Source: Synechococcaceae cyanobacterium RL_1_2
GTDB taxonomy: Bacteria; Cyanobacteriota; Cyanobacteriia; Cyanobacteriales; JAAUPO01
Reading direction: 5' to 3'
Length of the DNA stretch: 18,603 nucleotides
NCBI GenBank assembly: GCA_012033095.1
Contig: JAAUPO010000005.1
Location: forward strand, 1-18,603
Shown in pieces: positions 566-16,792 of the stretch. How positions within the stretch are numbered: the stretch's first letter is position 1; the number at the start of each line of letters is the position of its first letter. The notes beneath the pieces were generated by a model. It worked only from the letters and a program-made list of their open reading frames with translations, did not search any database and had not been told where the DNA came from. Both the position numbers and the translations under genes were made by a program.

Positions 566-1376
566 TTGTTAGTACTACTTGAGACCATCCCATTATTATT
601 AGTTTTTTGGTTAGGGGCCTGCGTAGGGAGCTTTTTGAATGTGGTGATTTATCGCTTGCCAGCCGGTTTATCCCTAATCCGACCGGGTTCCCATTGCCCA
701 AAATGTAACCATAGCTTAGGGGCAACGGAAAATGTGCCGATCGCGGGTTGGTTATGGTTGAAGGGGAAATGTCGTTGGTGTCGAGTTAAGATTTCCCCCC
801 GTTATCCCCTCGTTGAAACCATTACTGGTATTTTATTTACCGCGATCGTGATGAGGTATGGTTTTACCCTCACTACCCTAGGCTACGAAATTTTAGTTAG
901 TTTTTTTTATCTGTCTAGCTCTCATTGATTTAGATACCTTAACGTTGCCCCACCCCTTAACCAAATGGGGATTAATTTTGGGAGTAGTGTATCAAACCTT
1001 GATTGCTGGGCCCAATGTCATTACGGGCTTGATCTCTGCCATTACCGGTGCAGTCGTCGCCCTGTGGTTATTAGATGCGATCGCGTTTTTAGGATCGGCT
1101 TTCCTAGGCAAAAAAGCAATGGGAGGCGGTGATCCCAAATTATTAGCCATGATTGGGGCGTGGTTAGGTTTACCGTTAGCATTACTAACGCTGTTTTTAG
1201 CTTGTGGATTAGGAACAATTATTGGCGGTAGTGTGACCTGGGCTGAACGAAAAATCTATGGGCGATCGCCAAAAATACCCTTTGGCCCATTTCTAACCCT
1301 AGGAGCGATGGTCAGTATGATGTGGGGTCAACCAATAATTAATTGGTACTTAGAGTTTAATGGTCTTGTTCCCTAA
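566..1376 (+). pseudogene. pilD: type IV prepilin peptidase / N-methyltransferase (PilD), frameshifted
   Basis: PilD is an inner-membrane aspartic protease that cleaves and N-methylates type IV prepilins. The first half (566-928) has the family start [17 protein letters not shown] and a zinc-binding CPKC...CRWC domain. The second half, in the next frame, carries the two aspartate sites [10 protein letters not shown] (about 921-950) and GGGDPKLLAMIG, plus several membrane helices. The frames join at a run of eight T (901-908): removing one T gives a continuous reading of about 269 residues, normal for cyanobacterial PilD, with ...[15 protein letters not shown] across the join. No ATG lies in frame upstream before the stop at 521-523, so TTG at 566 is the likely start. 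The stop TAA lies within the CTAAG flank of a MITE. As given, both catalytic Asp are lost from the first ORF; sequencing error is the likeliest cause. Confidence 0.88.
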
Positions 1377-1377
1377 G

Positions 1378-1473
1378 GATCGTGAATTAAATAACTTAGA
1401 AATTTGTAAGGTATCCTTCAAGGGAGCGTAAACCATCGATATTTAAGTTTTAGATGTTATTAAATTCTTATTC
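1378..1473 (+). mobile_element. MITE family 1, copy 1 (96 bp)
   Basis: It starts GATCGTGAATTAAATAAC and ends TTATTAAATTCTTATTC. The two ends form an imperfect inverted repeat (the reverse complement of the right end reads GAATAAGAATTTAATAAC). Copies of the same element lie at 4765-4860 (inverted) and 10430-10616 (with an insert). The left flank is CTAAG, which contains the pilD stop codon; the right flank is CTTAA, so this copy's target duplication is imperfect. It has no coding capacity. Confidence 0.82.
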
Positions 1474-1514
1474 CTTAACCATGGGGGATGAAGTCAAGCA
1501 AAAATGATCAAAAA

Positions 1515-2028
1515 TTATTGCTTAACCCAGACTGCTAAGCCCCCCCCTCGCCCCCTGGCTGCGATCGCGTTGGGGACTACAGTAAAATACTTAAAAAAAG
1601 CTTGGTAAGCTACGGTTAACTTGGGAAATCTCGCCTCCCGTTCTTGCCCTTTGCGAATATAGCCGCTATAGATTTTGATCCCTAGAGCATAGAGATCTAA
1701 ATGGGTAAAATCAAATGCCATAATATTTTTCCCTTCGTAAAAAGCGATCGGGCCGGTTACCACCATTTTGACCACCCCTAGGGCCAAGGTATTCCTCACT
1801 CGCTGATCTGCCCCGTAGGTAATGGCAATGGTTAAAAAACTAGGAACGTATAACCCCTTAGTTTGTTTTTTCGCCAGTAAAAATTTTAGCTGCCATTCCC
1901 CAATCAAGTCAGTAAAGGCATATTTACTTTTTATTTTTTTCCCCTTTCAATAAGGCTTGGGCTAATTCTTCGGAAGAGGGACGGTTTCCCTTCTCCTTGA
2001 CGCGATCGATGATGGCACTGAAGTTCAT
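1515..2028 (-). pseudogene. conserved cyanobacterial protein, possibly PAP/fibrillin-like, frameshifted
   Basis: Reading leftward, ATG at 2028 opens MNFSAIIDRVKEKGNRPSSE and stops at 1924. The next frame continues ...KYAFTDLIGEWQLKF and runs to 1515. Dropping one base in the run at 1934-1944 (seven T next to four C on the plus strand) fuses them into about 170 residues. The pattern IGEWQLKF, then GPIAFYEGKNIMAFDFTHLD, then AIAARGRGGGLAVW at the C-terminus resembles a conserved cyanobacterial family I associate with PAP/fibrillin-like, lipocalin-type proteins; that is from memory and unsearched. The alternative start, TTG at 1907, would remove the conserved N-terminus and has no clear ribosome site. 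No signal peptide or membrane segment is visible. It stands alone between spacers. Function unknown. Confidence 0.6.
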
Positions 2029-2280
2029 AAGTTCAATAACTTTGCAAGCACAAGCAAACAATTAGGGCAATTAGGGCATGGAGCTTCATTTTAACGCGCC
2101 ATTATGCCATCTATAGCAATTCTAAATAGCTTGCGGCAATTGAGTACATTAAAAGCCAAGTCTAGTAAGGATCTTCATGTTATGACCTAGTTAGGACTGC
2201 CATAGGTCAAAAGCCCCCCTAGGATAGGATCAGAATTTATGGCTAGAACTTAAGCAATAACCCACAGCCCGATTAGGCTT

Positions 2281-2508
2281 TTAAACCTGATCGTCAGGAT
2301 AAAGGTCTAAATATTCTGATTCTTCATCATGGTTTATAAAGGGTTTTAATCCTTCTTGTTTGGAGAGCAACAATAATTGGGCTAAGTTAGAGATGTCCCG
2401 TTCCTTTAACTTGGTGTTCGCCAATTCATCAAATAAGCCATGGTATAGCTCCTCCAAACGATGACGGAGGTGAAATTTAACTAGTTTAGGATCTTCTTTT
2501 TCACTCAT
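2281..2508 (-). CDS. small hypothetical protein
   Basis: It encodes about 75 residues from ATG at 2508 (MSEKEDPKLVKFHLRHRLEE); the frame is open further upstream, to a TTG at 2583 that would give 100 residues. I prefer the ATG because the extra 25 residues are unremarkable and neither start has a clear Shine-Dalgarno. The product is rich in Leu, Glu, Lys and Asp, probably mostly helical, with an acidic tail (EESEYLDLYPDDQ). There is no signal peptide or membrane helix. The codon use looks coding, but I do not recognise a family. It could be a small soluble regulatory or accessory protein; nothing in the context indicates which. Confidence 0.5.
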   Translation of the reverse strand: MSEKEDPKLVKFHLRHRLEELYHGLFDELANTKLKERDISNLAQLLLLSKQEGLKPFINHDEESEYLDLYPDDQV

Positions 2509-3123
2509 AGCATTTAAAGTGGGGTAGGGTTCCCCTAGATTCAGGCGTTGCTGAAATAAAAGATGAAAGTTTTGTTTTGGCAAAAGATTTTAAGGACGCA
2601 TATTTGACTAGATTTTAAAACCGATCCAACCGATCAAGCCGATCAATGTTTAAATTCATCCCGAAATTAACTAACGCCTAGACTCAAGTTGATCGATCAA
2701 CCAGTCGGCAGTTGTTACCATGGGACAAATATGACTCCTACATAAAATTTTTCGAAGTGTAGCGACATAAAGGGTTTGCTAACGTTATCAGAAGCCTAAC
2801 TACAATTTAGTCTTAGAAAACAAAAACCCTATGGAGATCGATCGCGTAACCAAGGAAATAGGGAGCGTGATTCATTATTAACGCGATGAAGGAGCAAACA
2901 ATTGATTATTCCTATAAAGTTCGCAAAATTATTGGGGTAATCAGCCTAGGCTACTTCTGACCAGGGAAGTTTTATCACGTTGAGCAACGGCACAATCATA
3001 GGGATAGGGTTTTTAGGTGGTTCTTCTCCAAACCATCGTCGCCATTGTCGCTGCGAAATCAATGCTGTAAGGTTCAAGCCCTAAAACGTTAACTTAAGTG
3101 TTGATCGTAAATTACAGTTGAAA
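2509..3123. other. spacer without a convincing gene
   Basis: About 600 bases lie between two small minus-strand genes. It holds a short direct repeat at 2621-2647 (three 9-base units starting CCGATC). An open stretch on the plus strand (2950-3084) has protein-like composition (GSFITLSNGTIIGIGFLGG) but no ATG. I see no tRNA, no intrinsic terminator and no full element copy. Confidence 0.4.
2621..2647. repeat. three tandem 9-bp units, CCGATCMAN
   Basis: CCGATCCAA, CCGATCAAG and CCGATCAAT follow one another without a gap. The array lies about 110 bases upstream of the ATG of the minus-strand small gene. It could be a binding site or simple slippage. Confidence 0.55.
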
Positions 3124-3315
3124 TTAACGGCCCTGACGGGAAATCAACTTTTCTAATTGGGCTTGGGTTTCGTGGAGTAGCTGGGTACGGGGATCTCCGG
3201 CTTCGGATTCATCAATATTCGGTAATAAATTACGGGCCTGAAGGGCCATGTGTAACTGAAGTTCCGCTACGTAATCGCTGATGGGTTCAAAGGTAGGAGC
3301 TGGGGATAAATTCAT
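3124..3315 (-). CDS. small hypothetical protein
   Basis: It encodes 63 residues from ATG at 3315 to TAA at 3124-3126. The N-terminal part is Pro-rich (MNLSPAPTFEPISDYVAELQ), followed by a likely amphipathic helix and a C-terminal helix (TQLLHETQAQLEKLISRQGR). It has no signal peptide, cysteines or membrane segment. It is divergent from the NurA-like gene, whose ATG lies 122 bases away, so the two may share a promoter region. The composition suggests a real coding gene, but I do not recognise a family and no function can be given. Confidence 0.5.
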   Translation of the reverse strand: MNLSPAPTFEPISDYVAELQLHMALQARNLLPNIDESEAGDPRTQLLHETQAQLEKLISRQGR

Positions 3316-3437
3316 ATCAGTTCAGGATCTGCTTTGATCTCTTTTTACGCCTTAAAAGTTAACATGGTTAGGATAATTTGGACGCAATAGGGCGATCTCT
3401 CTTCATATTTTGCAACACAAGTATTTGTTCCTAGGCC

Positions 3438-4633
3438 ATGCTCGATCTGACTAAATTAGCCAAACAAATGCCTGGGTTAGGAGCCCATTTAACCCAACAA
3501 GCGATCGCGTCCAATGAACGGATCGATCGTGCTTGTGAACTGTTTAACCAGGCCTATAGCCATCAAGCCCCATTGTTAGCGGCCCAAGAAAAGTACTATG
3601 AACAATTAATTTTTGCCGCAGCAACCCCCGTCGAAAGCCTCGATCATTACCCCTGGTTACCAAAAGCAGCCGATCGCTATAGTATTTTTGCCACCGACGG
3701 CTCCCAAATTGCCCCCTCCCACCATGAAATTGCCTTTTGTTATTTGATTAATATTGGTCGGGTCATGTTGCACTATGGCCAAGATCTTCACCCTCTTTTG
3801 GATAGCATTCCAGAAGTATTTTATGAAAGCAAGGATCTCTACGAATCTCGTCAGTGGGGGATCGCCATGGATGAATGGTTAGGTTATCGCCGCACTGTGT
3901 CAGAAATTCAGGTGCTAACGGAAACCGCCATTAAATGGGTGTTACCCCCTGGGGCCCACGATCAGGATCCTAATCTAGCGTTGGTGGATGGCTCGTTAAT
4001 TTATTGGTTTTTAGAAAGTTTACCCTCCCCAGCCCGCGATCGCATTTTGATGCCCATTATGGAAGCCTGGGAACAGTGCCGCCTCCACCGCATTCCCCTC
4101 ATGAGTTATGTTAGTGCCCCCCGGAGTGTGGACGTCTTAAACTTTATGCGCTTAGCAGCTTGTACCTTTGAGGAGCCTAACTGTAATGACCATTGCGGCC
4201 AACTACCAGGTAAAGCACCCTGTCAAATCTTTGAACCCCTCCGGGATGCAACGGTCTATCAATATTTACTAAAACCGGGCCAACGGAGTCCGATCTGGAA
4301 AAGCAATTCTCGGATTTTAGATCTGTACGATCGCCATCACCACATTCATTTTTGTTACCTCCATGTTGGTTCCGAGGTAGCACGGGTAGAAATGCCCGCT
4401 TGGTTGCTAGAGGAGCCAGCTTTATTAGAACAATCCCTAGGGTTGATCCTCGATCAAGTATATAAAGGCTTTGGTTACCCCGTCTCGATCGCGGAGGCCC
4501 ACAACCAAGCGGTAGTTAGAGGCGGCGATCGGCAAAGATTTTTGCCCTGCTAGAAAATATGATGATCAAACAGGGCCTTACCAATGTAAAAACCTCCTAC
4601 AAAGAAGCCCGTAAGCGCAACAGTATCGCTTAG
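3438..4633 (+). CDS. nurA: NurA-domain nuclease, tail frameshifted
   Basis: NurA-domain proteins are Mn-dependent 5'-3' nucleases that process DNA ends, in archaea together with the HerA helicase; a partner is not visible here. The motifs run in order: FATDGSQIAP (about residues 83-92, metal-binding Asp), LALVDGSLIYWF (about 182-193), and a C-terminal block with VGSEVARVEMPAWL and AEAHNQAVVRGGDR. The uninterrupted ORF ends at TAG 4551-4553 (371 residues). Adding one T to the T5 run at 4539-4543 extends it as RFFALLENMMIK...SYKEARKRNSIA to TAG 4631-4633, about 398 residues, which resembles the family's usual ending. The ATG at 3438 lies close behind CCTAGG. The first 371 residues keep all visible catalytic motifs, so even the short form might be active. 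The nuclease role is inferred from the family. Confidence 0.78.
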
Positions 4634-4644
4634 GGCTGATGTCT

Positions 4645-4725
4645 AAAGCCCCCCTGCCACCCATGCTGGGGGAGAAATTCCTGAAAAAGCATTAAAAGTC
4701 CCCCAAATTTGGAAATTTAGGGGGC
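4645..4725. repeat. diverged relative of MITE family 3
   Basis: The segment starts AAAGCCCCCCTGCCACCCAT and ends with a TTTAGGGGGC motif. It follows the same order of C-rich and G-rich blocks as the family 3 copy at 4865-4995 (AAGCCCCCC, GGGGGA, AGTCCCCCAA, ATTTAGGG). The TGTTTGAAAAG ends are missing, so it is a core fragment or an older copy. It lies directly downstream of the NurA-like gene; its GC-rich inverted blocks could form a hairpin, but no T-run follows. Confidence 0.55.
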
Positions 4726-4764
4726 AAAATGCAAATTTAATTAACTTTATAAACAGCCTCTTAG

Positions 4765-4860
4765 GAATAAGAATTTAATAACATCTAAAACTTAAATATC
4801 GATGGTTTACGCTCCCTTGAAGGATACCGTACAAATTTCTAAGTTATTTAATTCACGATC
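4765..4860 (-). mobile_element. MITE family 1, copy 2 (96 bp, inverted)
   Basis: This is the reverse complement of copy 1 with very few differences and the same length. Both flanks read CTTAG (4760-4764 and 4861-4865), a perfect 5-bp target duplication matching CTNAG. It directly abuts a family 3 element. Confidence 0.88.
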
Positions 4861-4864
4861 CTTA

Positions 4865-4995
4865 GAAGATGTTTGAAAAGCCCCCCTTGCCCCCTAGTCT
4901 GGGGGAAATTACCTAGATTTTTAAGCAATTAAGTCCCCCAAGTTGGGGGATTTAGGGAGCGACTCCACAACATTTGATACTTTTCAAACACATTC
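4865..4995 (-). mobile_element. MITE family 3, copy 1 (131 bp)
   Basis: The ends are GAAGATGTTTGAAAAG and CTTTTCAAACACATTC, a 16-bp terminal inverted repeat with two mismatches. The interior holds C-rich and G-rich palindromic blocks. TTA flanks it on both sides (4862-4864 and 4996-4998). It is the inverted counterpart of the copy at 15287-15418. It shares its left edge with the target duplication of MITE family 1 copy 2 and has no coding capacity. Confidence 0.85.
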
Positions 4996-5024
4996 TTAAG
5001 GCAATTTTTTATAGGATGGTGATC

Positions 5025-6035
5025 CTAAGTCGATTGATTTAATTTATCAAGTTGGCTCAACGCTTGATCCAAATTAAGGGGTTCTTTGCCTGGGCTCGCC
5101 TTCCCCATCACCGATTGCATTCCCTCGATCGTAGAAACCAAACTGTTCGGATCCATAAACATGACTTTGCTACTGCCACTTTGACCGATGGTGCTACCCA
5201 TATCCAAGTAACTCTGAGCCAAAATAAACTTTAATGCCTCATGGGCTTTCGGATCATTATTTAACTCACTAGCCACAATTTGAATCGCCTTGGCTGTAGC
5301 TTGAGCTTTTAACACTTGCTCCTGTTGCACCGCTTGAGCTTGAAGAATCGTAGATTCCTTTTTTGCCTCTGCCGCTAAGATAGCAGCCTTTTTCTCCGCT
5401 TCCGCTTCTAACACGTTCGCCTCAGCCCGTCCTTCCGCCGAATTAATCGCCGCCGCTTTTTCCCCTTCTGACGTAAGAATAGCTGCCCGTTTTCTGCGTT
5501 CTGCGGACATTTGCAGTTCCATGGAATCCATCACCGCTTTTGAAGGCACAATATCCCGTAGTTCAACCCTGGTCACCTTCACCCCCCAAGGATCCGTCGC
5601 CACATCCAATTCCCTCAGCAACAATTCATTAACTTCGGTGCGGGCTGTAAAAGTTTGATCCAATTCCAATTGGCCCATCTCTGAGCGAATTTGGGTTAAC
5701 ACTAAATTCACCATGGCTTGTCTCAGGTTTTCGACCTTGTAGTAAGCCTTATACATATCCACAATACACCAATAGACCACCGCATCCACCGTGATACTGA
5801 CGTTATCTTTGGTGATACAACCCTGGGGAGGAATATCTAAAACTTTCTCCCGAATGGTCTCCTGATAGACAATTTTGTCGATAAAAGGAGTAACCACATT
5901 CAATCCAGGGCCTAGTTTTTTCTTATAGCTACCCAAACTTTCCACTAAGTATTCATTTTTTTCGCTCACAATTTTGATCGAACCCAAAAATGCGGCTGAA
6001 AAGAACACCGCTATTACTGTAATAAACGGGCCCAT
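5025..6035 (-). CDS. SPFH/stomatin-like membrane protein
   Basis: It has 336 residues. Residues 1-20 form a membrane anchor ([18 protein letters not shown]). The SPFH/Band 7 domain spans about 25-190, with [18 protein letters not shown], the [16 protein letters not shown] strand pair and [11 protein letters not shown]. An Ala/Glu/Lys-rich coiled coil follows (about 175-250), typical of the stomatin/QmcA branch; it resembles the cyanobacterial stomatin homologue Slr1128. Such proteins oligomerise on membranes and organise microdomains or modulate proteases; the partner here is unknown. A good ribosome site (AGGAG, 8 bases before ATG 6035) fixes the start. It is divergent from gnd across a spacer of about 300 bases. 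No neighbouring NfeD gene is seen, which fits the slr1128-like stand-alone type. The frame is intact. Confidence 0.93.
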
Positions 6036-6334
6036 ACATTTAACTCCTGAAAAACGATAATTGCTATTGTTGCTGCTATTTTAATGGCAATTTTTCTGGT
6101 TACATCTAAAGATGAAGTTAAGTTATGCTCCGTCGTAGAAATTTTACGACAGGCAGATTTACGCAATATTTTGTAAAAAAAGTCCTTAACAGATCAAGAA
6201 ATATCATCAAAGTTCATAGTAACGGTAAGCAATCTAAAGATTTTCCATAATCCGGTAGGGGCTTCTAGCATCTTCATTACCATGATGGAGGCATTATTTT
6301 TTTGATAGATCCCTAGAGATATAGCTTAGAGCTT
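6036..6334. promoter_or_regulatory. divergent spacer between the SPFH gene and gnd
   Basis: The spacer must contain both promoters, but no -10/-35 pair is clear enough to place. A short inverted repeat TCGTAGAAATTTTACGA lies near 6133-6149. AT-rich runs (TTTTGTAAAAAAAG, ATTATTTTTTTGATAGAT) lie on the gnd side. There is no gene or element copy here. Confidence 0.4.
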
Positions 6335-7750
6335 ATGAAAAGAACCTTTGGTGTAATTGGTTTAGCGGTAATGGGTGAAAACCTCGCCCTTAATGTGGAA
6401 AGTAGAGGCTTTCCGATCGCTGTCTATAACCGTACCAGCGCAAAAACTGAGGCCTTTATGGCCACGAGGGCGGTAGGTAAGGATATAAAAGCAGCCTACT
6501 CCCTTGAAGAATTTGTCCAGACCCTTGAGCGGCCCCGCAAAATTTTAGTGATGGTGAAAGCGGGGGGCCCGGTGGATGGAGTGATTCAAGATTTAAAACC
6601 CTTACTAGAAGAAGGGGATATGATTATTGATGGAGGCAATTCCCTCTATCAAGATACAGAGCGGCGTACCCAGGAATTAGAGGCTAGTGGCCTAGGCTTT
6701 GTCGGCATGGGGGTCAGTGGTGGGGAAGAAGGAGCATTAAATGGCCCCAGTTTGATGCCCGGAGGCACCGCCAGTGCTTACCAAGAATTAGAACCGATCG
6801 TGACTAAAATCGCCGCCCAGGTGGATGAAGGCCCCTGTGTAACCTATATTGGGCCCGGTGGTGCCGGTCATTACGTCAAGATGGTGCACAATGGCATCGA
6901 ATACGGTGATATGCAACTGATCGCCGAAGCCTATGACATTCTCCATCAGGGGGTGGGGGTCACCAATGAAGAACTGCACACCACCTTTGCCGCATGGAAT
7001 AAAACCGAAGAGTTAGATTCCTTTTTGATTGAAATTACCACTGATATTTTTAAGCAAAAGGATGATCAAGGGGATGGTTTTCTCCTAGATAAAATCATGG
7101 ACTCCGCTGGTCAAAAAGGGACAGGTCGTTGGACAGTGGTCAGTTCCCTAGAGTTAGGGGTACCAATTCCTACTATGTATGCGGCGGTTAATGCGCGGGT
7201 TATTTCTTCGTTTAAGGAGGAGCGCATGGTGGCATCGAAGGAGCTAACCGGTGTGGTGGGTTCTTTTACTGGGGATAAAATGGATTTTATTGATAAGGTG
7301 CGGGATGCCCTTTATTGTTCCAAAATGTGTTCCTATGCCCAGGGCATGGCTTTGCTGGCTAAGGCTTCTGAGGAGTTTAAGTATGATCTGAAACTGGGGG
7401 AAATTGCCCGGATTTGGAAGGGTGGCTGCATTATTAAAGCGGGCTTTTTGGGCAAAATTAAAAAGGCTTTTGATGATAACCCCAGTTTGCCTAATCTGTT
7501 ATTGGCACCGGAGTTTAAACAATCGATCCTCGATCGCCAATCTGCTTGGCGGGAAGTAATTGTCACAGCGAATCAATTGGGGATTCCTGTGCCAGCGTTT
7601 AGTGCGTCCTTGGATTACTTTGATAGCTATCGCAGCGATCGTTTACCCCAAAATATTACCCAAGCCCAACGGGATTATTTTGGAGCCCACACCTATGAGC
7701 GCACAGATAAACCTAGGGGGGAATTTTTCCACACAGAATGGGGTAAATAA
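6335..7750 (+). CDS. gnd: 6-phosphogluconate dehydrogenase, decarboxylating
   Basis: The enzyme converts 6-phosphogluconate and NADP+ to ribulose 5-phosphate, CO2 and NADPH in the oxidative pentose phosphate pathway, in the cytoplasm. It has 471 residues, within the family's usual 468-475. The N-terminal Rossmann motif is GVIGLAVMGENLALN (6-20). The substrate and catalytic blocks are VGMGVSGGEEGALNGPSLMPGG, GHYVKMVHNGIEYGDMQLIA (catalytic Lys and the HNG motif) and DSAGQKGTGRWT. The C-terminal tail, with YFGAHTYERTDKPRG, reaches into the partner subunit of the dimer. The ATG at 6335 is the natural start. The frame is intact despite several short homopolymers, unlike many neighbours. A strong terminator follows, so it is probably monocistronic. 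Very firm assignment. Confidence 0.98.
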   Translation: MKRTFGVIGLAVMGENLALNVESRGFPIAVYNRTSAKTEAFMATRAVGKDIKAAYSLEEFVQTLERPRKILVMVKAGGPVDGVIQDLKPLLEEGDMIIDGGNSLYQDTERRTQELEASGLGFVGMGVSGGEEGALNGPSLMPGGTASAYQELEPIVTKIAAQVDEGPCVTYIGPGGAGHYVKMVHNGIEYGDMQLIAEAYDILHQGVGVTNEELHTTFAAWNKTEELDSFLIEITTDIFKQKDDQGDGFLLDKIMDSAGQKGTGRWTVVSSLELGVPIPTMYAAVNARVISSFKEERMVASKELTGVVGSFTGDKMDFIDKVRDALYCSKMCSYAQGMALLAKASEEFKYDLKLGEIARIWKGGCIIKAGFLGKIKKAFDDNPSLPNLLLAPEFKQSILDRQSAWREVIVTANQLGIPVPAFSASLDYFDSYRSDRLPQNITQAQRDYFGAHTYERTDKPRGEFFHTEWGK

Positions 7751-7788
7751 ATTGCTGGGGATTACCCTAAACCCTAATTAAACGCCAT

Positions 7789-7820: not shown

Positions 7821-7886
7821 GGGAGTTCCTTCAACCTTTATCAATAAGATCTATGATGGGAGAAAATAATTTAGACGAACAAAATC

Positions 7887-9492
7887 ATGAAAAAGTGGAG
7901 TTTCCTAGCCGCGATCGCAGCGGTCGGAGTTGGCGGTGCAGCAACCTGGGGGCTAGGCTCTTTTGTCTATCAAAAAATATTTGGCGGTGAAGAACTAACC
8001 CTGTCCCAAGGCACAGCATTGATGCCAGAGAATGCCCTAATGGCTGGTTTAATTGATTTGGAAAGTGGAGATTTAGAAGCAAATATTGAATCCTTAAATA
8101 AGCTAACCAAGGATGAGTTTGGCCAAGGGTGGAAAGCCCTTAACCAAGAGCTATTTAATAATCCAGATATTACCTATGAAAAGGATATTTCCCCATGGTT
8201 AGGCCAATATCTTTTTTGCCTTATTACCTGAACCAGAAGGCCCTGAGCCCGTGATCATCGCGGGGATCAAAGATAAGCTCCAAGCCCTGAGTTTTGCAAG
8301 CAAAATGGATGGAGAGGAAAAGCCCACCACCTATGACTATAAAGGGGTAGAAGTTAGTACAACTACTAATAATGCGTTTGCGGTGCTAGACGATTTTATT
8401 GTGGTCGCTCCTGTCCCGGCGCTAGTGGAAAAAATAATTGATACGGAGCAAGGGGCCCCCTCTTTGCAGGATCAGGGCATTGAGCCTCAATTTTCCCTTG
8501 ATCAGCCTTTTATCCAGGCATTTATTCCTAGTTACGCTAACTTAATGACACTGGCAACGGCAGAGCAAGGTGCCCAAGGCCTTTCCCCCCAGTTACAAGC
8601 AAGTTTAAGCATGATTAGTAATATCGGTTATGCCTTAGATTTTGAAGATAATCAAATTCAGATCCAAGGCACTATGGATATTGATCCTGCCGCGATCTCT
8701 AAACAACAACCGACTATGTTCACTTCCACGGCGATCAAAAAATTACCGGCGGATACATTAATGATGGTGAATATGGATTTGAGTCGTTTTAACCAAGGGT
8801 GGAGTGCCATGGTGGAAGCGTCCCAAGAGATCCCAGAAAGTAAGCGTGTCTTTGATGGGATACGTAATCTGGTGAAGCGTTTTACTGGCTTAAATCTAGA
8901 AGAGGATTTAGTTAACTGGATGGATGAGGAATTTGCCCTGGCCATTATCCCTAGCTCTAAACCCCTCGTCCCCCAGTTTCCGATTAGCGGTAATTTTTTG
9001 GTGGGTACCAGTAAACCCGCCGAAGCAACTAAAAGCCTGACTAAACTGGATAGTTTTATCCAAAAAAGTGTACGCCCCAACATGGTCAATAAAAGCCAAA
9101 CGAAGGTGGACGGCAAAGACATAACCCAATGGGATACTTTCCAAAAACAAACTGTATTTTCCTATGGTTGGTTAGACAAAAACACCCTCTTAACTTCGAT
9201 CGGGGATAGTGTGGGTAATACCGCGATCGGTAAAGGACAAAGCCTTGATCAAAACCCGAAGTTTAAGGAGTTAGCCAGTCAATTTCCCCAGAAAAACTTT
9301 GGTTATTTTTATTGGAATTTAGCGGATAGCGTTAAACTGATTCCCCCCGCCCAATTACAGTTGAGCACCCCTGGTCAGCAAAGTTTTATTCAATCCCTTG
9401 ATGCTGCCCTCACCACCTCGTTTTTCCTGGATGACGATACGATCGAATATAACTCCATCATTACCCTATCTCCACCGGAATCCCAGAATTAA
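7887..9492 (+). pseudogene. DUF3352 family protein, frameshifted
   Basis: ATG at 7887 opens MKKWSFLAAIAAVGVGGAAT, a positively charged end plus a hydrophobic helix (signal anchor). This suggests a protein tethered to the plasma or thylakoid membrane with its bulk outside the cytoplasm. The first frame stops at TGA 8229-8231, and the next frame covers 8251-9492. Removing one T from the T6 run at 8212-8217 joins them as SPWLGQYLFALLPEPEGPEP and gives about 534 residues, the usual size of the cyanobacterial DUF3352 family. Later blocks (LPADTLMMVNMDLSRFNQGW, FGYFYWNLADSV) fit the family's repeated layout. The biochemical function is unknown. It follows the gnd terminator, so it has its own promoter in the short gap. 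The break is probably a homopolymer length error. Confidence 0.8.
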
Positions 9493-9796: not shown

Positions 9797-10429
9797 ATGA
9801 TCATGCGTGACCTTCGCCAAAACTATGAGTTTGGTACATTAACTAGAGCTAATGCCCACCCCGATCCATTTGCTCAATTTGAAACGTGGTTCCAGGATGC
9901 TCTTAAAGCAGACATTGTAGAACCCAACGCCATGACCTTGGCCACCATTTCCCCAGAGGGTAAAGTTAATGCCCGCATTGTCCTTTTGAAGGTATGCGAT
10001 CGCCGGGGTTTCACTTTTTTTACTAATTATCAAAGTCAGAAGGGGCAAGATTTAACTGCAAACCCCCAAGCAAGCCTTGTTTTTTGGTGGGATCGGTTAG
10101 AGCGTCAAGTTCGGGTGGAAGGCGCGGTGATTAAAATTGCCCCAGCAGAATCCGATGAGTATTTTTATGCCCGGCCGAAGTCGTCCCAAGTGGGGGCCTG
10201 GGCTTCTCCCCAAAGTGCAGTGATTAAGGATCGAACGGAATTAGAAGCTAATTTTGAACGGTACGATCGCCAGGAAGAAACCATGGTGCGGCCTCCCCAT
10301 TGGGGTGGGTTTCGGGTGATTCCTACCGAGATCGAGTTTTGGCAAGGCCGCCCTTCCCGCCTCCACGATCGCTTGAAATACACGTTGATGGAGGATCAAA
10401 CCTGGCGGATTGATCGCTTAGCCCCTTAG
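9797..10429 (+). CDS. pdxH: pyridoxamine 5'-phosphate oxidase
   Basis: The FMN enzyme oxidises pyridoxine or pyridoxamine 5'-phosphate to pyridoxal 5'-phosphate (vitamin B6 salvage) and works as a cytoplasmic dimer. It has 210 residues, close to the family norm of 210-220. Visible are NARIVLLKVCDRRGFTFFTN (FMN-binding split barrel), SQKGQDL, RQVRVEG, YFYARPKSSQVGAWASPQS and the family signature EFWQGRPSRLHDR, ending in RIDRLAP as is usual. ATG at 9797 is followed two codons later by another ATG (9803); the ribosome site is weak, so either could start. The TAG stop lies within the CTTAG target duplication of a MITE, and the element begins at the next base. The frame is intact. Confidence 0.97.
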   Translation: MIMRDLRQNYEFGTLTRANAHPDPFAQFETWFQDALKADIVEPNAMTLATISPEGKVNARIVLLKVCDRRGFTFFTNYQSQKGQDLTANPQASLVFWWDRLERQVRVEGAVIKIAPAESDEYFYARPKSSQVGAWASPQSAVIKDRTELEANFERYDRQEETMVRPPHWGGFRVIPTEIEFWQGRPSRLHDRLKYTLMEDQTWRIDRLAP

Positions 10430-10616
10430 GATCGTGAATTAAATAACTTAAAAATTTGTAGGGTATCCTTCAAGGGAGCGTAACCCATCGATATTTATAG
10501 TTAATTTAATTTAAAATGGGATAGTTATTTATTGCTATGAGATGCTTTTAGCTCTATTTATTTCCCGTAATTATCCAAAAAGACTATAAGTTTTAGATGT
10601 TATTAAATTCTTATTC
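10430..10616 (+). mobile_element. MITE family 1, copy 3, interrupted by a family 2 element
   Basis: The ends match copies 1 and 2 (GATCGTGAATTAAATAAC ... TTCTTATTC). Both flanks read CTTAG (10425-10429 and 10617-10621), a perfect target duplication whose left copy supplies the pdxH stop codon. Subtracting the 91-base insert (89-bp element plus the extra TA) leaves exactly 96 bp, the length of the other two copies. Confidence 0.9.
10498..10586 (+). mobile_element. MITE family 2, copy B (89 bp), nested
   Basis: TAGTTAATTTAATTTAAAAT ... CCAAAAAGACTA is flanked by TA on each side (10496-10497 and 10587-10588). It sits inside MITE family 1 copy 3, at the TTTAAG site that is uninterrupted in the other copies. 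The TA duplication is typical of elements moved by IS630/Tc1/mariner-type transposases. It has no coding capacity. Confidence 0.88.
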
Positions 10617-10707
10617 CTTAGGAAAAATTTGAGCGATCGTTCTCAGGCTAATATTTTTGTGGTTTGAGCTGCTCCCAAGGGTTGTGATGGGTCAACTTCC
10701 ATAGATA

Positions 10708-10801
10708 TAGTCAATTTAATTTAGTATGGGATGGGATGGTTATTTCTTGCTATCCAATGCTTTCAGCTCCATTTATTTTCCGTAATTATTCAAAAAGACT
10801 A
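10708..10801 (+). mobile_element. MITE family 2, copy C
   Basis: TAGTCAATTTAATTTAGTAT ... CAAAAAGACTA is flanked by TA (10706-10707 and 10802-10803). It shares most bases with copy B, including TTTCCGTAATTATTCAAAAA-type sequence near the right end. Its right end lies 3 bases from the tmk stop codon, so it forms the 3' flank of tmk. Confidence 0.85.
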
Positions 10802-10804
10802 TAA

Positions 10805-11461
10805 CTAGGGATATTGGGATAATCGGGCCGCGATCGCTTGGCGTAGATCCGTCTGTACTTGGTCAGGAGGGCGGTTTGCGTCAATGGTCACTACGCGATC
10901 GGGGTGGGCGAGGGCCAACGCTTGAAAACCCTCCCTAACCCGGCGGTGAAAATCCAGGGATTCCTGTTCAATGCGATCGCCACCGGAGTAATTACCTTGA
11001 AGTCCCCGGGCCCTTTTTACCCCCTGACTTACGTCCACATCTAACCACAGGGTCAGATCACTGGTTAAGCCGGTGGTAGCGATCGCGTTTAATTGCTCGA
11101 TGAGGGTTAAATCCAATTGGCGGCCGTATCCTTGGTAAGCCACGGTGGAATCGGTGTAACGATCGCTCAACACAATACCCCCCTGGGCTAAATGGGGTTT
11201 AATCTGCTCCTCCACATGCTGGGCGCGATCGGCCGCATATAACAATAATTCCGTGAGGGGAACCATGGGGTTATCTGGGTTTAACAGCATTTGTCTGATC
11301 CCCTGGCCTAGGGCTGTGCCCCCCGGTTGACGGGTAACCAGTAAAGGGCGATCGGCGTAGGTGGTAGTTAACCATTGAGTAGTTAAGGCAATTTGAGTGG
11401 TTTTCCCAGCCCCTTCCGTCCCCTCCACCACAATAAATTTTCCTGGATGACCCATCGTCAA
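10805..11461 (-). CDS. tmk: thymidylate kinase
   Basis: It phosphorylates dTMP to dTDP with ATP, in the cytoplasm, for dTTP synthesis. It has 216-218 residues, normal for the family. Motifs: P-loop VEGTEGAGKTT near the N-terminus, TRQPGGTALGQGIR (dTMP-binding loop; the more usual form is REPGGT), LSDRYTDSTVAYQGYGR (DRY/S motif) and the LID with RARGLQGNYSGGDRIEQE. An Arg-bearing LID with no Arg in the P-loop resembles the bacterial type II enzymes. AGGAG lies 9 bases before TTG at 11461 and 15 bases before ATG at 11455. Spacing favours TTG and codon preference favours ATG; the difference is two residues. The frame is intact. It is followed closely by a MITE and preceded by two spacer hairpins. 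Confidence 0.96.
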   Translation of the reverse strand: MTMGHPGKFIVVEGTEGAGKTTQIALTTQWLTTTYADRPLLVTRQPGGTALGQGIRQMLLNPDNPMVPLTELLLYAADRAQHVEEQIKPHLAQGGIVLSDRYTDSTVAYQGYGRQLDLTLIEQLNAIATTGLTSDLTLWLDVDVSQGVKRARGLQGNYSGGDRIEQESLDFHRRVREGFQALALAHPDRVVTIDANRPPDQVQTDLRQAIAARLSQYP

Positions 11462-11504
11462 TCTTGATTACTCCTATGTTTGATTTCGTAACCCATCGCT
11501 GTAG

Positions 11505-11553
11505 CCCAATCATGATTGGGGGTTAACTATCGGGGTCAAGTATTATCGACCCC
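11505..11553. other. two inverted repeats between tmk and the amidase
   Basis: CCCAATCATGATTGGG (11505-11520) is a perfect 16-base palindrome. Shortly after it, GGGGTC (11532-11537) pairs with GACCCC (11548-11553). They lie upstream of tmk and downstream of the amidase, on the minus strand. No T-run follows either on that strand, so a terminator is doubtful; a protein-binding or RNA-structure role is possible. Confidence 0.4.
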
Positions 11554-11643
11554 TACAGGATAGGACAAATTTTTCCCCCATGAGGAGCGATGAAACTGGA
11601 ATCATCTCCTTTGAAATGATCGATCGCGAACCTCCCCCACAAG

Positions 11644-13094
11644 CTAATTTTTGATCGTCGGGTTAGGTGGATAGCGATCGCTCCAGGGTTGGGCCTGCTC
11701 CAATTGAGCGGCTAGAGCATATAACAACCTTTCATTACCAAAGGCGGCCCCGATTTGGATTCCTAAGGGTAAGTTATCTTGACTCCACCACAGGGGCACA
11801 TTCATGGCGGGGTTGCCACTAACGTTATACAACGCAGCAAAAGCCCCATAGGGTAAGCATTCCCCTAGATAGCGATCGAAGTTAAAATCATCGCCGCCGG
11901 TTTGACAATCGGAAATGGGGTAGGGATATTTAGCGATCGTGGGGGTCATTAAACAATCATACTCTGCAAAAAAATGGGCTAGCTGGGCTGTCACTTGATG
12001 GGTGTATTGAATGGCTAGACCATATTCTGCGGCGGAACATTGGGCCCCGATCGCGCCAAAAGCTTGGGTATGGGGTTCAAAGGGCAATTGGGAAAGGGGG
12101 GTTTGGGTTAATTTGGCTAAAGTTTGCATCAATAAATAGGTATTAACCCCAATGATAATGTTCAAATTTTGGGTAAATAATTGTCCATCAATGGAAAAAT
12201 TAGCTTCCCTTACTTGGTGCCCTAAATCCGTTAACAATTGGGCTGTTTTGGTCACAGCTTCGGCCTGCTCCGGCGCGATCGCTTCCCCAAAATAGGTTTG
12301 GGTCATGAAGGCAATGTTCAGGGGTTGGGGGGGTTGGGTGGTGGCCGATAAAAAAGTTCCGGAGGGTGGAGCCACTTGATAAGGAGCCCCTAATTCCGGC
12401 CCGGCAGTGGCATCCATTAACGCGGCGTTGTCCCGCACCGAGCGACTAATGCCATGGTTTCCCCCCAGGCCATTCCAAATTTCCCCCACATTGGGCCCCA
12501 CCGGAATTCTGGCCCGGGTTGGTTTCATGGCAAAGGTGCCACAACAGGCCGACGGTACCCGCAAGGACCCCCCCCATCACTGCCATGGGCCAGGGGGATC
12601 ATTCGACTACTCACCGCGATCGTGCCCCCCCGCTGGAGCCCCCCCATGTTCATAGCCCGATGCCAAGGGTTATAGCTTTGGCCCGTCAACGCAGAACTGG
12701 TGTTATAACTTAACCCAAACTCTGGGCTGGTGGTACTGCCCATAATCACCAAACCGGCTTGTTTATAGCGTTTGGTGAGTTCGTTATCGTAGGGGGCAAG
12801 GAAGTTATAACCCACCGCCCTCGTGCCCATGGTGCTGGGTAACCCTTCACACCATAATCCCAAATCTTTAATTAAAAATGGTACTCCCTGGAACGGGCCA
12901 GGGGGTAATCCTGCTGCGATCGCGTCCCGGCCATAATCGTAGGCTTTATGGCTCAGGGCCCGGTAATGGGGATCGAGGCGTTCAATGCGATCAATGGCAG
13001 TTTCCCATAGGTCTAGGGGGGTAACTTCTCCTTGGGCGATCAAAGCAGCTAAACCTAGGGCATCGTAGCGATCGTAGTCGGGGAATAGGGCCAT
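11644..13094 (-). pseudogene. amidase-signature family hydrolase, frameshifted
   Basis: The amidase signature family hydrolyses amide bonds with a Ser-cisSer-Lys triad. The N-terminal frame (ATG 13094) has GPFQGVPFLIKDLG with the catalytic Lys and runs into GSDGGG. The second frame continues (L)RVPSACCGTFAMKPTRARIP to TAG-free sequence ending at 11644. Adding one C to the C8 run at 12568-12575 restores SDGGGSLRVPSA with the nucleophile Ser. Two more C runs (12625-12631 and 12639-12645) appear to carry opposite errors: as given the protein reads MGGLQRGGTI, whereas C8 and C6 respectively give MGGSSGGGTI, the cis-Ser signature. The corrected length is about 483 residues. The layout suggests a NylA-like or general amidase, not GatA. 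It reads toward tmk, about 180 bases away. The substrate is unknown. Confidence 0.85.
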
Positions 13095-13189
13095 GGTTTT
13101 GTTGGAGTGGGAAAACTAAATAACCAATGATAAAAGTACTTCTAGGGTTGAGGCCAAGGATCAAGCCATTTCATTAACAGTCCATCTTT

Positions 13190-13212
13190 GAATTTTCGAG
13201 AGTTTCAAGTAA
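13190..13212. repeat. 23-bp dispersed repeat, copy 2
   Basis: GAATTTTCGAGAGTTTCAAG plus TAA matches 9617-9639 with two one-base indels. Here it lies in non-coding sequence upstream of the amidase gene. Confidence 0.5.
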
Positions 13213-13348
13213 TAATAGTTCGGAGTTCGGACGCTTTTTCGAGCAAGCTCTGAAACCATTGGTCTATCTTTGGCTAGAACATCGTGATCGAGACCTAAAA
13301 CCCATATTCTGCCGTTGACTACCAACAATTGTCCGGAGTATTGAAGTA

Positions 13349-13439
13349 TAGTATTTTTGAATAATTACGGGAAATAAATAGAGCTAAAAGCTTTGTATTA
13401 CAAGAAATAAAGCATTCCCATACTTAGTTAAATCAACTA
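13349..13439 (-). mobile_element. MITE family 2, copy D (91 bp, inverted)
   Basis: TAGTATTTTTGAATAATTAC ... AACTA is the reverse complement of the family consensus; it includes GGGAAATAAATAGAGCTAAA. TA flanks both ends (13347-13348 and 13440-13441). It lies downstream of the 5'-nucleotidase gene. Confidence 0.85.
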
Positions 13440-13550
13440 TAAGTCCTGGTTAAAAAAATCAACAATTAATTTCACCCCAGTTAGAGTAGTAGTAGCTATG
13501 GCTGATTTCCCATTGCTTCACCCTAGAGCCTGTTTCCCTTGTCATCGAAA

Positions 13551-15016
13551 CTACGGAGCAAGGTAATTGATCAAAGAAAAACGAATATCGTCCCCTATAT
13601 TCATAATTGCCACATCAGGATGGTCAGGGGTCAAATAGTCTAAGTTTTGTTCCAAGCCCGTTAATAAAAAGTCATTGATGGCGATCGTGTAAGTTGCTGA
13701 AGGTTCCACAAGGCGATCGCCGATTAACCACCCCCCATCAGTAGGGGTAACGTTAGCAGTTTGGAGATAGCCCCCATTGCCCATATTGGCTAGACCTTGG
13801 TTCAACACTTGCTGCAACAATGCTCCTTTCATCCCCACCGTCATAATTTTGCCCCCAAAGGGCATGATGCGAATAATGTCATATTGGGTTAGTTCCCCAG
13901 GGGGTAGGACATCATCAATGCGAATCATGCCACCATTGAAAATTGCCACCTCGGCCTCAGGGGTACTAGCTAACATGCCCGCCGCGATCGCTTCCGTTAG
14001 GGTTGTGGGCTGATTACGAACGCTTGACTCCAAACCATCTAACGGTGCTGGGATCGTTGCTACTACTTCCTCTGGCATAAAACCATTGGCACGAAAAGCC
14101 TCAAAGCTGACATTAACCCAATTATTCACAATCTCGGCTAGGGCGGGCTGCTCGGATAAATTTCCATCAATGGGTTTTAATTGGGAGTGAATCTCAAGGT
14201 GATCAGTGGCTGTGTCGTAGCTTAATCGATGAATATAGACCGTGCGGCCATTGCCATCGGCTTTAAAAATTGGAGTAAATCATCCCCGCGCCAAGCTTGG
14301 ATGTTTTCATGTTCATGGCCCCCTAAAATGAGATCAATTTCAGGAATGGTAACAGCTAGCTTCTCATCGTCCTCTAAGGCTAGGTGGGTAACGGCCACAA
14401 TTACATCGACATCGGTTTGTTCTTTGATCCCCTCGATGTCCCGTTTTATGGTCATAAAAGGATCATCATAGGACACATAATCCTTAGGGTTACTATCTAA
14501 CGTGGCCCCCACTAGACCCACGGTAATCATGGCCTCTTCCCCACGGATGGAGAGAAGAAGAGAAGACGGAACCCCAGGAAAGGCTTGGCCCTGGTTATCT
14601 AAGACATTTCCAGAAAACCACTGGAATTGTGACTCTGCTAAACGTTGATAAAATTGATGTTCTTTGAGGTCAAATTCATGGTTCCCAAAGGTGGCAAAAT
14701 CTAAACCCATGGCATTCATGACCGCCACCATTTGGGCCCCCGCGATCGCTTCCCCATCAATTTTGGCTGTTCCTAGGGCTGAGGGACTTAACATATCCCC
14801 AGCAATTAAGGTAAACGTATTGGGATTTTCTGCGATTAGTTGTTCTCGTAGGGTGGCAATCCTGGCTAAACCTCCACTTTTGCCACTGGAAACTGGGGTG
14901 ATTTCATAGACATCGTTTAGTTGTAATAGGGTAAACCTGATTATTTCTGCTTGTACCGGATTACCCACAACAACGGAGACTAACATCGCGGCCAAAATGG
15001 AGGCAGATAATTTCAT
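13551..15016 (-). pseudogene. secreted 5'-nucleotidase / metallophosphatase, frameshifted
   Basis: Members of this family hydrolyse nucleotides or cyclic phosphodiesters outside the cytoplasm with two metal ions. ATG at 15016 opens a signal peptide (MKLSASILAAMLVSVVVGNP, cleavage after VQA); a TTG at 15040 is less likely. The metallophosphatase motifs run in order: LLQLNDVYEI, AGDMLSPS, FGNHEFD, VTHLALEDD and ILGGHEHE. The first frame stops at 14222. One more A in the A5 run at 14265-14269 (a T on the coding strand) continues it as QFFKADGNGRTVYIHRLSYD into the C-terminal nucleotidase domain (FNGGMIRIDDVLPPGELTQY, MPFGGKI), ending at 13551. The corrected length is about 488 residues. A role in phosphate or nucleotide scavenging is likely; whether it is a 5'-nucleotidase or a cyclic phosphodiesterase cannot be told. 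Confidence 0.87.
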
Positions 15017-15232
15017 GGCATCAAATCCGTTTAACAACAAGGAACATTAGCTTCACCGTACTACAGCGATCGCTTAATCAAAATGACCGTAACAATCTCT
15101 TTAGTTCCCATGAGAATTTATCGCTACGGCCATAAACATCAAGTTATTTAGCCGATGTCCCATTTAACATAGGATGATGGTGGCAAGATCATAGATTAGG
15201 ATCTTAACTAGATTTATTTGCTGATCCTGTTG

Positions 15233-15287
15233 AAATAATTTTTTAAATAATTTTTTAAATATTATTTAGATTATTTAGATTATTTAG
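15233..15287. repeat. AT-rich tandem repeats (2 x 12 bp, 3 x 9 bp)
   Basis: AAATAATTTTTT occurs twice in a row (15233-15256), followed by three perfect ATTATTTAG units (15261-15287). The TTA used as target by the family 3 MITE is inside the last unit. It is probably slippage-prone AT-rich sequence. Confidence 0.75.
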
Positions 15288-15418
15288 AATGTGTTTGAAA
15301 AGTATCAAATGTTGTGGAGTCGCCCCCTAAATCCTCCAACTTGGGGGACTTAATTGCTTAAAAAGCTAGGTGATTTTCCCCAGACTAGGGGGCAAGGGGG
15401 GGCTTTTCAAACATCTTC
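15287..15418 (+). mobile_element. MITE family 3, copy 2 (132 bp)
   Basis: The ends GAATGTGTTTGAAAAG and CTTTTCAAACATCTTC form a 16-bp inverted repeat with two mismatches. TTA flanks both ends (15284-15286 and 15419-15421). Apart from a few bases it is the reverse complement of the copy at 4865-4995. The C-rich and G-rich interior can fold into a long hairpin. It lies upstream of the GTPase gene. Confidence 0.88.
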
Positions 15419-15440
15419 TTAGAAAATACTTTAAATAATA

Positions 15441-15470
15441 TTGGCATCATTTTGGCATCGTATTGGCATC
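15441..15470 (+). promoter_or_regulatory. three TTGGCATC direct repeats, 11-bp period
   Basis: TTGGCATC occurs at 15441-15448, 15452-15459 and 15463-15470, exactly 11 bases apart, and is followed by CATTTATTTAATTCC. The array ends 32 bases before the preferred GTPase start. Sites one helical turn apart suggest cooperative binding of a regulator on one face of the DNA; no regulator is known for this motif to me. Confidence 0.45.
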
Positions 15471-15502
15471 ATTTATTTAATTCCGGTGTGAGTGATTTAT
15501 CC

Positions 15503-16792
15503 ATGGCAAATCCTGAGCATAAGCAAAAAAATAACGAGTTTACTCGGCTTTGGCAGAATATTAAAAACCGGAACGATCGCAGGATTAGATCAAGTTACTA
15601 AAACTGCTACGGGCTGGTTCACCATCAAAGAGGAAGATTTATCGGAAATTTTAGCCCAGGTAAAGGAGCAGTTACCCACCACCGAAGCGATCTTGTTCGG
15701 AAAAACCCAATCGGGCAAAAGCTCCATTGTGCGAGCCATTACGGGGGTATCGGCGGAAATTATTGGGGAGGGTTATCGCCCCCATACCCAACATACCAGT
15801 CGTTATCTTTATCCCACGGATGATCTGCCCTTGATTACGTTTACCGATACGGTGGGCCTAGGAGATGTAAATCAAAGTTCTGCCGCGATCGCGGAGGAAA
15901 TCATTAAGGATTTAGGCCAGGAGACGGCTAAAGCAGCCATTTTAATTGTGACGATCAGAAGTAATGATTTTGCCACAGCTAGTCTCATTGAGACCCTCAA
16001 GAGCATTCGTCATCAATATCCCCAGCTTCCTTGTTTATTGGCTATTACCTGTGTTCATGAATTGTATCCCCCTACCATGGAGGATCATCCGGCCTATCCG
16101 CCCCAGTTGGACGCGGTGACTAGGGCGATCACCCAATTAGAACAGGATTTTGCAGGGTTATACGATCGCTCAGTGGTGGTGGACTTTACCCTAGAAGCAG
16201 ATGATTTTGAACCGATGTTTTACGGGATTGAGGCCTTTGGAGAACAGTTAGCGGAACTATTGCCCGCAGCGGAAGCCCAAACCATCCATGATTTACTCGA
16301 TCGGGACTGGGACAATCAATTAGGGAATATTTATCGAGATACGGCCCGCCGTTATTTGGTGGTATTTTCCGCAGCGGCGGCTACCATAGCTGCCGTACCT
16401 TTCCCGATCGCTACCATGCCCGCTTTGACTGCGGTGCAAGTATCCATGGTGGCCGTAATTGCCAAACTATATAACCAAAAATTAAATTTAGGCCAAGCAG
16501 GGGGAGTGGTGAGCGCGATCGCGGGGGGATTTTTAGCTCAAATGGTAGGCCGGGAACTGGTGAAATTTATTCCCGTGTTTGGTTCGGTGGTGGCGGCTTC
16601 CTGGGCTGCGGCCTATACCTGGGCCCTAGGAGAAGGAGCTTGTGTTTATTTTGGGGATTTGATGGGGGGGAAAAAAACCAGATCCGGCCAAAAATCCAAG
16701 AGGTCATGGCAACGGCCTTTGCCGATGCAAAAATTCGTTTTAAAGCCCTAGGGCAAGATCAACAAGATCAAACAGAAAAACCGGAAAGCTAA
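15503..16792 (+). CDS. P-loop GTPase with hydrophobic C-terminal domain (DUF697-like), frameshifted at both ends
   Basis: The uninterrupted ORF is 15492-16751 (419 residues). It carries a Walker A motif FGKTQSGKSS, switch residues in RPHTQHTSRY, Walker B TFTDTVGLGD, and a C-terminal region with hydrophobic helices (FSAAAATIAAVPFPIATMPA; GGVVSAIAGGFLAQMVG) as in DUF697 GTPases. The N-terminus looks better in another frame: ATG at 15503 reads MANPEHKQKNNEFTRLWQNI, and removing one A from the A5 run at 15563-15567 joins it to TGTIAGLDQVTKTATGWFTI. At the other end, one extra base in the G7A7 tract (16664-16677) replaces the odd basic tail with QEVMATAFADAKIRFKALGQ and ends at TAA 16790-16792. 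The corrected length is about 429 residues. The guanine-specificity motif is not clear (ITCVHEL may replace NKxD). It probably acts at a membrane; its role is unknown. Confidence 0.78.

What the first reader, a model, noticed from the sequence alone, without database searches (positions are those of the whole stretch)
566..16792. At least ten one-base indels, all in or beside homopolymers, break seven genes
pilD (T8, 901-908), the PAP-like gene (T7C4, 1934-1944), nurA (T5, 4539-4543), DUF3352 (T6, 8212-8217), the amidase (C8, 12568-12575, plus two compensating C7 runs), the 5'-nucleotidase (A5, 14265-14269) and the GTPase (A5, 15563-15567; G7A7, 16664-16677) each read as two or three frames that rejoin on changing one base. 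Both gains and losses occur. I see no nonsense substitution and no loss of conserved residues outside the joins. Real decay would leave mixed damage, so a homopolymer-prone read technology is the best explanation. An alternative is real slippage or phase variation, or early reduction in a symbiont. Automatic annotation would report about twice as many genes here as exist.
Basis: partly seen in the sequence, partly recalled or inferred. Interest (0 to 1): 0.8.

Follow-up and report, generated by a model that had tools for sequence, protein, structure and literature searches.

The report
Sequencing indel errors breaking cyanobacterial genes
The seven broken genes in this stretch of a cyanobacterial draft genome are very probably read errors: the same one-base slips run through the parts of the draft examined and hit even genes no cell can live without, so probably nothing biological is broken.

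Summary
In detail: seven window genes change reading frame at 11 sites. The window is one 18.6-kb contig of a fragmented cyanobacterial draft (2.88 Mb, 495 contigs, 61.67% complete).

In the window plus 60 other contigs (401 kb), 82 gene rows at least 50% identical to a relative carry 69 frameshift sites and 2 in-frame stops in 25,719 codons. Control cyanobacterial loci give 1 and 0 in 25,177 codons, of which 10,174 are not the gnd gene. A decaying endosymbiont locus gives 10 and 7 in 883.

Nine of 13 transcription, translation and replication genes are hit, rpoC2 (the only copy found) in three frames. Core genes overall are not spared (0.82 against 0.96 sites per kb). Sites gather at homopolymers. 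Contigs differ in rate; genes within contigs do not. Platform or assembly error is the best reading.

Against it: the same truncated NurA seems to stand in a second public record; intact window genes and a set of 14 metabolic core genes were spared more than chance suggests. No reads were available.

The parts
566..1376 (+). prepilin peptidase pilD in two frames; frame change near 902 in a T run
   Evidence: Pfam PF06750 on 566-928 and PF01478 on 945-1373; one frame change, 56% identity to G006; relatives hold one frame of 266-298 aa
1515..2030 (-). PAP-like gene in two frames; frame change near 1926 at a T/C run
3438..4633 (+). nurA, truncated near its 3' end; frame change near 4539 in a T run
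   Evidence: PF09376; one frame change against P0008, P0013 and P0035; relatives about 398 aa
7887..9492 (+). DUF3352 gene in two frames; frame change near 8205-8217 in a T run
   Evidence: PF11832 on both pieces; one frame change against P0003 and P0005, 31% identity
11644..13094 (-). amidase in two main frames plus a short out-of-frame stretch between about 12650 and 12622 holding the GGSSGG motif
   Evidence: PF01425 on both pieces; frame change near 12566; motif in another frame
13551..15040 (-). 5'-nucleotidase in two frames; frame change near 14280
   Evidence: PF02872 on one piece and PF00149 on the other; one frame change against G015 and G007
15492..16792 (+). DUF697 GTPase with three frame changes near 15563, 16665 and 16690
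   Evidence: PF01926, with DUF697 just under cut-off; three frame changes against P0127, 90% identity over 419 codons
5025..6035 (-). SPFH/Band 7 protein, intact
   Evidence: open frame 336 aa; PF01145
6335..7750 (+). 6-phosphogluconate dehydrogenase gnd, intact
   Evidence: 471 aa, 82% identity to G013; PF00393
9797..10429 (+). pyridoxamine 5'-phosphate oxidase pdxH, intact
   Evidence: PF01243 and PF10590
10805..11461 (-). thymidylate kinase tmk, intact
   Evidence: PF02223
17273..17818 (-). DUF1499 protein, intact
   Evidence: PF07386
17784..18603 (+). UPF0176/rhodanese protein, open at the contig end
   Evidence: PF17773 and PF00581

Best explanation
The frame changes are consensus errors of the assembly, not mutations. 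A read technology that miscounts repeated bases (454, Ion Torrent or unpolished nanopore; which one is inferred, not shown) left about 0.9 one-base indels per kb of coding sequence, more in contigs that were presumably thinly covered. The living cyanobacterium has intact genes. Shown in the sampled part of the draft: mostly one-base indels in both directions, almost no stops, essential genes hit, dependence on run length, variation by contig. Inferred: platform, low coverage, and that the cell's genes are whole.
For: 69 sites and 2 stops in 82 rows (25,719 codons), against 1 and 0 in 67 control rows (25,177 codons; without gnd 35 rows, 10,174 codons, still 1 and 0). Ratio unlike the EtSB locus (10 to 7 in 883 codons; Fisher P = 9e-5). 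rpoC2, the only copy found, is in three frames; valS lies in pieces. Of 13 information-processing genes 9 are broken (cysS, fusA, gatA, infC, polA, priA, proS, rpoC2, valS) and 4 whole; 1.17 sites per kb against 0.79 in the rest (P 0.14). Of 27 core genes 12 are broken; 0.82 against 0.96 per kb (P 0.55). Share of runs with a site nearby rises from 4 of 11,912 at length 2 to 6 of 31 at 7 and 3 of 6 at 8 (0 of 2 at 9); runs of 7 or more near 7 of 69 sites, null 0.4. Contigs differ (P 0.023), genes within contigs do not (P 0.50). A 93%-identical full-length GTPase exists.
Against: The identical truncated 371-aa NurA is listed with a longest contig of 2,587 bases, not 18,603, so a second record seems to hold it; if from other reads, that break is real. 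In the window none of 11 sites falls in six intact genes (5,067 of 13,230 bp; P 0.005, post hoc), tmk and gnd among them. The 14 metabolic and photosynthesis core genes alone have 0.33 sites per kb against 1.03 elsewhere (P 0.006, set chosen by me afterwards). More rows than expected carry no site (49 against 39.6, P 0.018). Repeat pairs at 98-100% identity (2,153 bp, not independent) show 1 one-base indel where about 4 were expected by my arithmetic, and 26 substitutions. 23 of 69 sites have no run over 3. Contig order looks like an ordinary length-ranked assembly, which names no platform.
Confidence: 0.91

Rival explanations
1. Real early gene decay in a host-bound or bottlenecked cyanobacterium, caught before substitutions and deletions accumulate.
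For: Low coding density by open frames (73% in 401 kb, 84% in G013), many interspersed repeats, the same truncated NurA seemingly in a second record, window genes gnd and tmk intact, metabolic core set hit less.
Against: rpoC2, valS, proS, cysS and infC are broken; almost no stops, unlike the EtSB locus; no difference among genes within contigs. Low coding density is itself expected if errors cut genes up.
Confidence: 0.05
2. A mixture: mostly read errors, with a few real breaks such as nurA.
For: Identical truncated NurA apparently on a second contig.
Against: The second record may be a reassembly of the same reads; its source is not shown.
Confidence: 0.02
3. A mismatch-repair-deficient mutator with true homopolymer indels.
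For: Run-length dependence and near absence of stops.
Against: Essential genes broken, rpoC2 without another copy in the draft; 23 of 69 sites away from any run over 3.
Confidence: 0.01
4. Phase variation, programmed frameshifting or polymerase slippage that rescues broken frames, as proposed for poly(A) tracts in insect endosymbionts (recalled).
For: Sites enriched at runs.
Against: About one site per kb, at different places in each gene, a third without any run over 3, many genes with two or more sites. Slippage would have to correct each transcript several times.
Confidence: 0.01

Closest known systems
Homopolymer indel error in pyrosequencing metagenomes (HMM-FRAME, PMC3115854; start of abstract seen in listing)
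   Same: gains and losses enriched at homopolymers that create frameshifts in metagenomic genes
   Different: platform of this draft unknown; a third of sites lie away from runs over 3
Gene-fragmenting indels in long-read draft assemblies (Kastor, PMC12007338; Trycycler, PMC8442456; starts of abstracts seen in listings)
   Same: errors that falsely pseudogenise genes in draft assemblies
   Different: contigs here are short and ranked by length, which I would not expect of most long-read assemblies (recalled)
Spheroid body of Epithemia turgida, a decaying cyanobacterial endosymbiont (EtSB, locus L031; PMC5638926, passages read)
   Same: cyanobacterium with many broken genes and a genome under 3 Mb (this draft is incomplete)
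   Different: EtSB shows stops as well as frameshifts and most photosystem genes appear absent; here psbC and psbD are whole and translation genes are broken

Membership tests
homopolymer read or consensus error | indels greatly outnumber nonsense substitutions | tested here: met
   69 sites to 2 stops
homopolymer read or consensus error | frequency rises with run length | tested here: met
   0 of 2 runs of length 9 had a site
homopolymer read or consensus error | essential and other genes hit alike | tested here: inconclusive
   27 core genes 0.82 per kb, rest 0.96 (P 0.55); 13 information-processing genes 1.17 against 0.79 (P 0.14), but 14 metabolic core genes 0.33 against 1.03 (P 0.006); window's intact genes spared (P 0.005)
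homopolymer read or consensus error | varies with contig, not with gene | tested here: met
   contig P 0.023, gene within contig P 0.50
homopolymer read or consensus error | disagrees with accurate reads or an independent assembly | not testable with these tools
   no reads held; the 2,587-base record agrees for nurA but its origin is not shown
reductive endosymbiont genome | mixed damage including stops | tested here: not met
   2 stops against 69 indels; EtSB locus 7 against 10
reductive endosymbiont genome | genes needed for transcription and translation spared | tested here: not met
   rpoC2, valS, infC, proS, cysS broken
phase-variable or slippage-rescued genes | breaks confined to long runs | tested here: not met
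   23 of 69 sites have no run over 3 nearby
mismatch-repair mutator | loss of mutS or mutL | not tested
   draft is 61.67% complete, so absence would say little

The most novel reading that the evidence does not exclude
A living cyanobacterium of a family with no other held genome really carries about one indel per kb, in rpoC2 and translation genes too, and survives by pervasive polymerase or ribosome slippage.
Probability: 0.01. Interest if true: 0.95.

Novelty: not a real feature. Interest (0 to 1): 0.1.

Why it matters
No relative from its own family came up among the 19 relatives searched, so this draft's false pseudogenes could distort gene counts, completeness estimates and any inference of symbiosis or genome reduction for that family. 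The stop-to-frameshift ratio and the within-contig test are cheap screens that help to separate read error from decay.

Tried and rejected
Plain tblastn chaining first suggested 19 in-frame stops in genes at least 50% identical. Frameshift-aware alignment left 2, so nearly all lay in stretches read in the wrong frame. rRNA could not be used: no 16S or 23S match in the draft, but these searches rang in only 9 and 10 of 14 control genomes and missed the cyanobacterial one. Self-repeats were too few at high identity to decide. A pattern at runs of 5 or more, A/T 17 losses to 5 gains and G/C 0 to 4, with one two-base gain each, does not hold in the window, where T runs gained a base and a C run lost one. 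EF-G is not a strict single-copy test, since a 51%-identical 727-aa paralogue exists, so I lean on rpoC2; 'only copy' rests on one family search of a 61.67%-complete draft.

My first core set (15 genes, 1.22 against 0.75 per kb) was drawn mostly from genes already known to be broken, so I dropped it. I then named the intact rows too and recounted with a 13-gene and a 27-gene set; those sets were also chosen by me after seeing the table. The control codons turned out to be mostly gnd (15,473 of 26,060 with EtSB), so I give the count without gnd as well. Of the 80 loci only the 15 of cyanobacterial type served as controls; the other 65 were not used. rpsJ is named by recall; the family search at E 1e-60 returned nothing for it. 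A search for papers on Epithemia pseudogenes with four terms found none; a looser one found PMC5638926. Slippage papers were seen only as a listing.
Full report
What was given.

The observation. The window is the whole of contig C249 (18,603 bases) in a draft cyanobacterial genome of 2,878,432 bases in 495 contigs, 61.67% complete and 1.91% contaminated. The 19 relatives the tool chose are all of the same order but other families. I aligned each named gene to relatives with a frameshift-aware aligner. All seven genes change frame near the stated places, and the best-scoring alignment of each holds no in-frame stop; the weaker DUF3352 alignment to P0005 reports the gene's own terminal stop at 9490. 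The GTPase has three sites against P0127. The amidase has, besides the change near 12566, a short stretch between about 12650 and 12622 in another frame, where its conserved GGSSGG motif lies; the low-penalty run that exposed it also gave several spurious shifts and one stop, so I rely on the motif. In all 11 sites, 7 gains and 4 losses. Relatives carry longer single frames for pilD (19 of 19), for the PAP-like gene (12 of 12 with a match, 7 without), for the amidase family (all matches but two in G010) and for the 5'-nucleotidase (the two close matches); NurA of about 398 aa and GTPases of 393-466 aa fill the lists (120 rows shown of 2,811 and of 2,883). Six other window genes, SPFH, gnd, pdxH, tmk, DUF1499 and the rhodanese protein, are intact.

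A census of part of the draft. As reference I took 1.6 Mb of the 3.16-Mb main contig of the relative G013, which gave 1,340 non-overlapping open frames of 90 aa or more. tblastn gave 180 best chains; after frameshift-aware alignment 82 rows (81 genes, polA appearing twice) were at least 50% identical, 25,719 codons in all; rows below 50% were set aside. They carry 70 frame changes, 69 after removing a duplicate, and 2 in-frame stops. The types are 43 losses of one base, 21 gains and 5 two-base gains, which a one-base loss would mimic. 41 of the 69 have at least 50% identity within 25 residues on both sides. The window adds five rows to the 82, all without a site: its seven broken genes lacked a reference or fell below 50%, so they are not counted in the census and are independent of it.

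Controls. The same method on 33 held loci (327,538 bases: 15 of the 80 loci, those of cyanobacterial type, and 18 gnd loci of relatives) gave, leaving out EtSB, 67 rows and 25,177 codons with 1 frame change and no stop. Much of this is gnd itself; without gnd it is 35 rows, 33 different genes, 10,174 codons, still 1 and 0 (P = 4e-9 for the difference in rate). The locus of EtSB, an endosymbiont whose gene decay is published (PMC5638926, passages read), gave 5 rows and 883 codons with 10 frame changes and 7 stops. The difference in ratio, 69 to 2 against 10 to 7, has Fisher P = 9e-5. EtSB is one 21-kb locus, six of its frame changes in one gene, so this is a small yardstick.

Which genes are hit. 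I ran 30 of the 33 broken reference proteins against curated families; 20 passed a cut-off. They include EF-G, fabF, proline, cysteine and valine tRNA ligases, ferrochelatase, GatA, RNA polymerase beta'' (rpoC2), DNA polymerase I, PriA, IF-3, TruB, alanine racemase, GroEL, DusA and PstB. rpoC2 has no other copy in the draft and reads in three pieces in different frames. valS lies in pieces on C121; the other matches look like related synthetases (my reading). EF-G has a 727-aa, 51%-identical relative elsewhere, so it is weaker evidence. rpoB has one open frame of 1,127 codons. I also named most intact rows. Of 13 transcription, translation and replication genes, 9 are broken and rpsL, rpsG, rpsJ and tufA are whole: 25 sites in 7,133 codons, 1.17 per kb, against 0.79 in the rest (P 0.14). 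Adding 14 metabolic and photosynthesis genes, 12 of 27 are broken: 0.82 against 0.96 per kb (P 0.55). Those 14 alone have only 5 sites, 0.33 against 1.03 per kb (P 0.006), which speaks for some sparing; the sets were chosen by me after seeing the table. By identity class the rate is 0.73, 0.88, 1.30 and 0.45 per kb. A cell without rpoC2 or IF-3 does not live (established knowledge), so these at least cannot be real breaks unless rescued or backed by a copy missing from the draft.

Where the sites lie. Within 8 bases of a site a run of 5 or more is found for 27 of 69 (null 7.8) and of 7 or more for 7 (null 0.4). The share of runs with a site nearby rises from 4 of 11,912 at length 2 to 6 of 31 at length 7 and 3 of 6 at length 8, with 0 of 2 at length 9 (70 changes before removing the duplicate, each given to the longest run near it). 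Even so 23 of 69 sites have no run over 3, so 'all in or beside homopolymers' fits the window better than the rest of the sample. Rates differ between contigs (P 0.023) but not between genes within a contig (P 0.50). That is what uneven read depth would give; decay should do the reverse.

Results against this reading. The protein collection lists a NurA identical to the window's truncated 371-aa frame with a longest contig of 2,587 bases, where the window's contig has 18,603. A second record therefore seems to hold it; if it comes from other reads, the nurA break is real. Its source is not shown. The window's own GTPase frame is not among the 120 hits shown, perhaps because it was annotated as a pseudogene (inference). 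In the window no site falls in the six intact genes (P 0.005, chosen after the fact). 49 rows have no site against 39.6 expected (P 0.018). The nearest-identical repeats show fewer indels than the error rate predicts, on little sequence. The metabolic core set is hit less.

Verdict. The simplest account is consensus error of about 0.9 indels per kb of coding sequence. Published work describes both kinds of source: homopolymer indels in pyrosequencing metagenomes (PMC3115854, start of abstract in listing) and gene-fragmenting errors in long-read drafts (PMC12007338, start of abstract in listing). The contig order, lengths falling by name rank with a floor near 3 kb, suggests an ordinary length-ranked metagenome assembly; this is inference and names no platform.

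Noticed in passing
4860-5012, 15283-15435, 17165-17270, 10430-10640: Short interspersed repeats, some folding into long hairpins, with 28 to 38 matches of 50 bp or more in the 401 kb held (the first two are one family in opposite directions); they look like miniature transposable elements.
   Followed up: partly
16853-17032: A 180-bp element with long terminal inverted repeats, three copies of about 93-94% identity in 401 kb.
   Followed up: no
1376-1490, 4759-4862, 10428-10502: A repeat family in three copies within the window, at the stop of pilD and of pdxH and about 130 bases after nurA; 16 matches in 401 kb.
   Followed up: no
L105: A contig titled Candidatus Gracilibacteria bacterium SU_1_2 encodes a gnd 79% identical to this cyanobacterial one; probably a misassigned cyanobacterial contig.
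   Followed up: no
G000:C433 (L258), G000:C115 (L139): rpoB has one open frame of 1,127 codons, while EF-G beside intact rpsL, rpsG and tufA has three frame-change sites.
   Followed up: yes
P0002, P0127: JGI metagenome contigs encode relatives 90 and 93% identical to window proteins, so a close relative is present elsewhere.
   Followed up: partly
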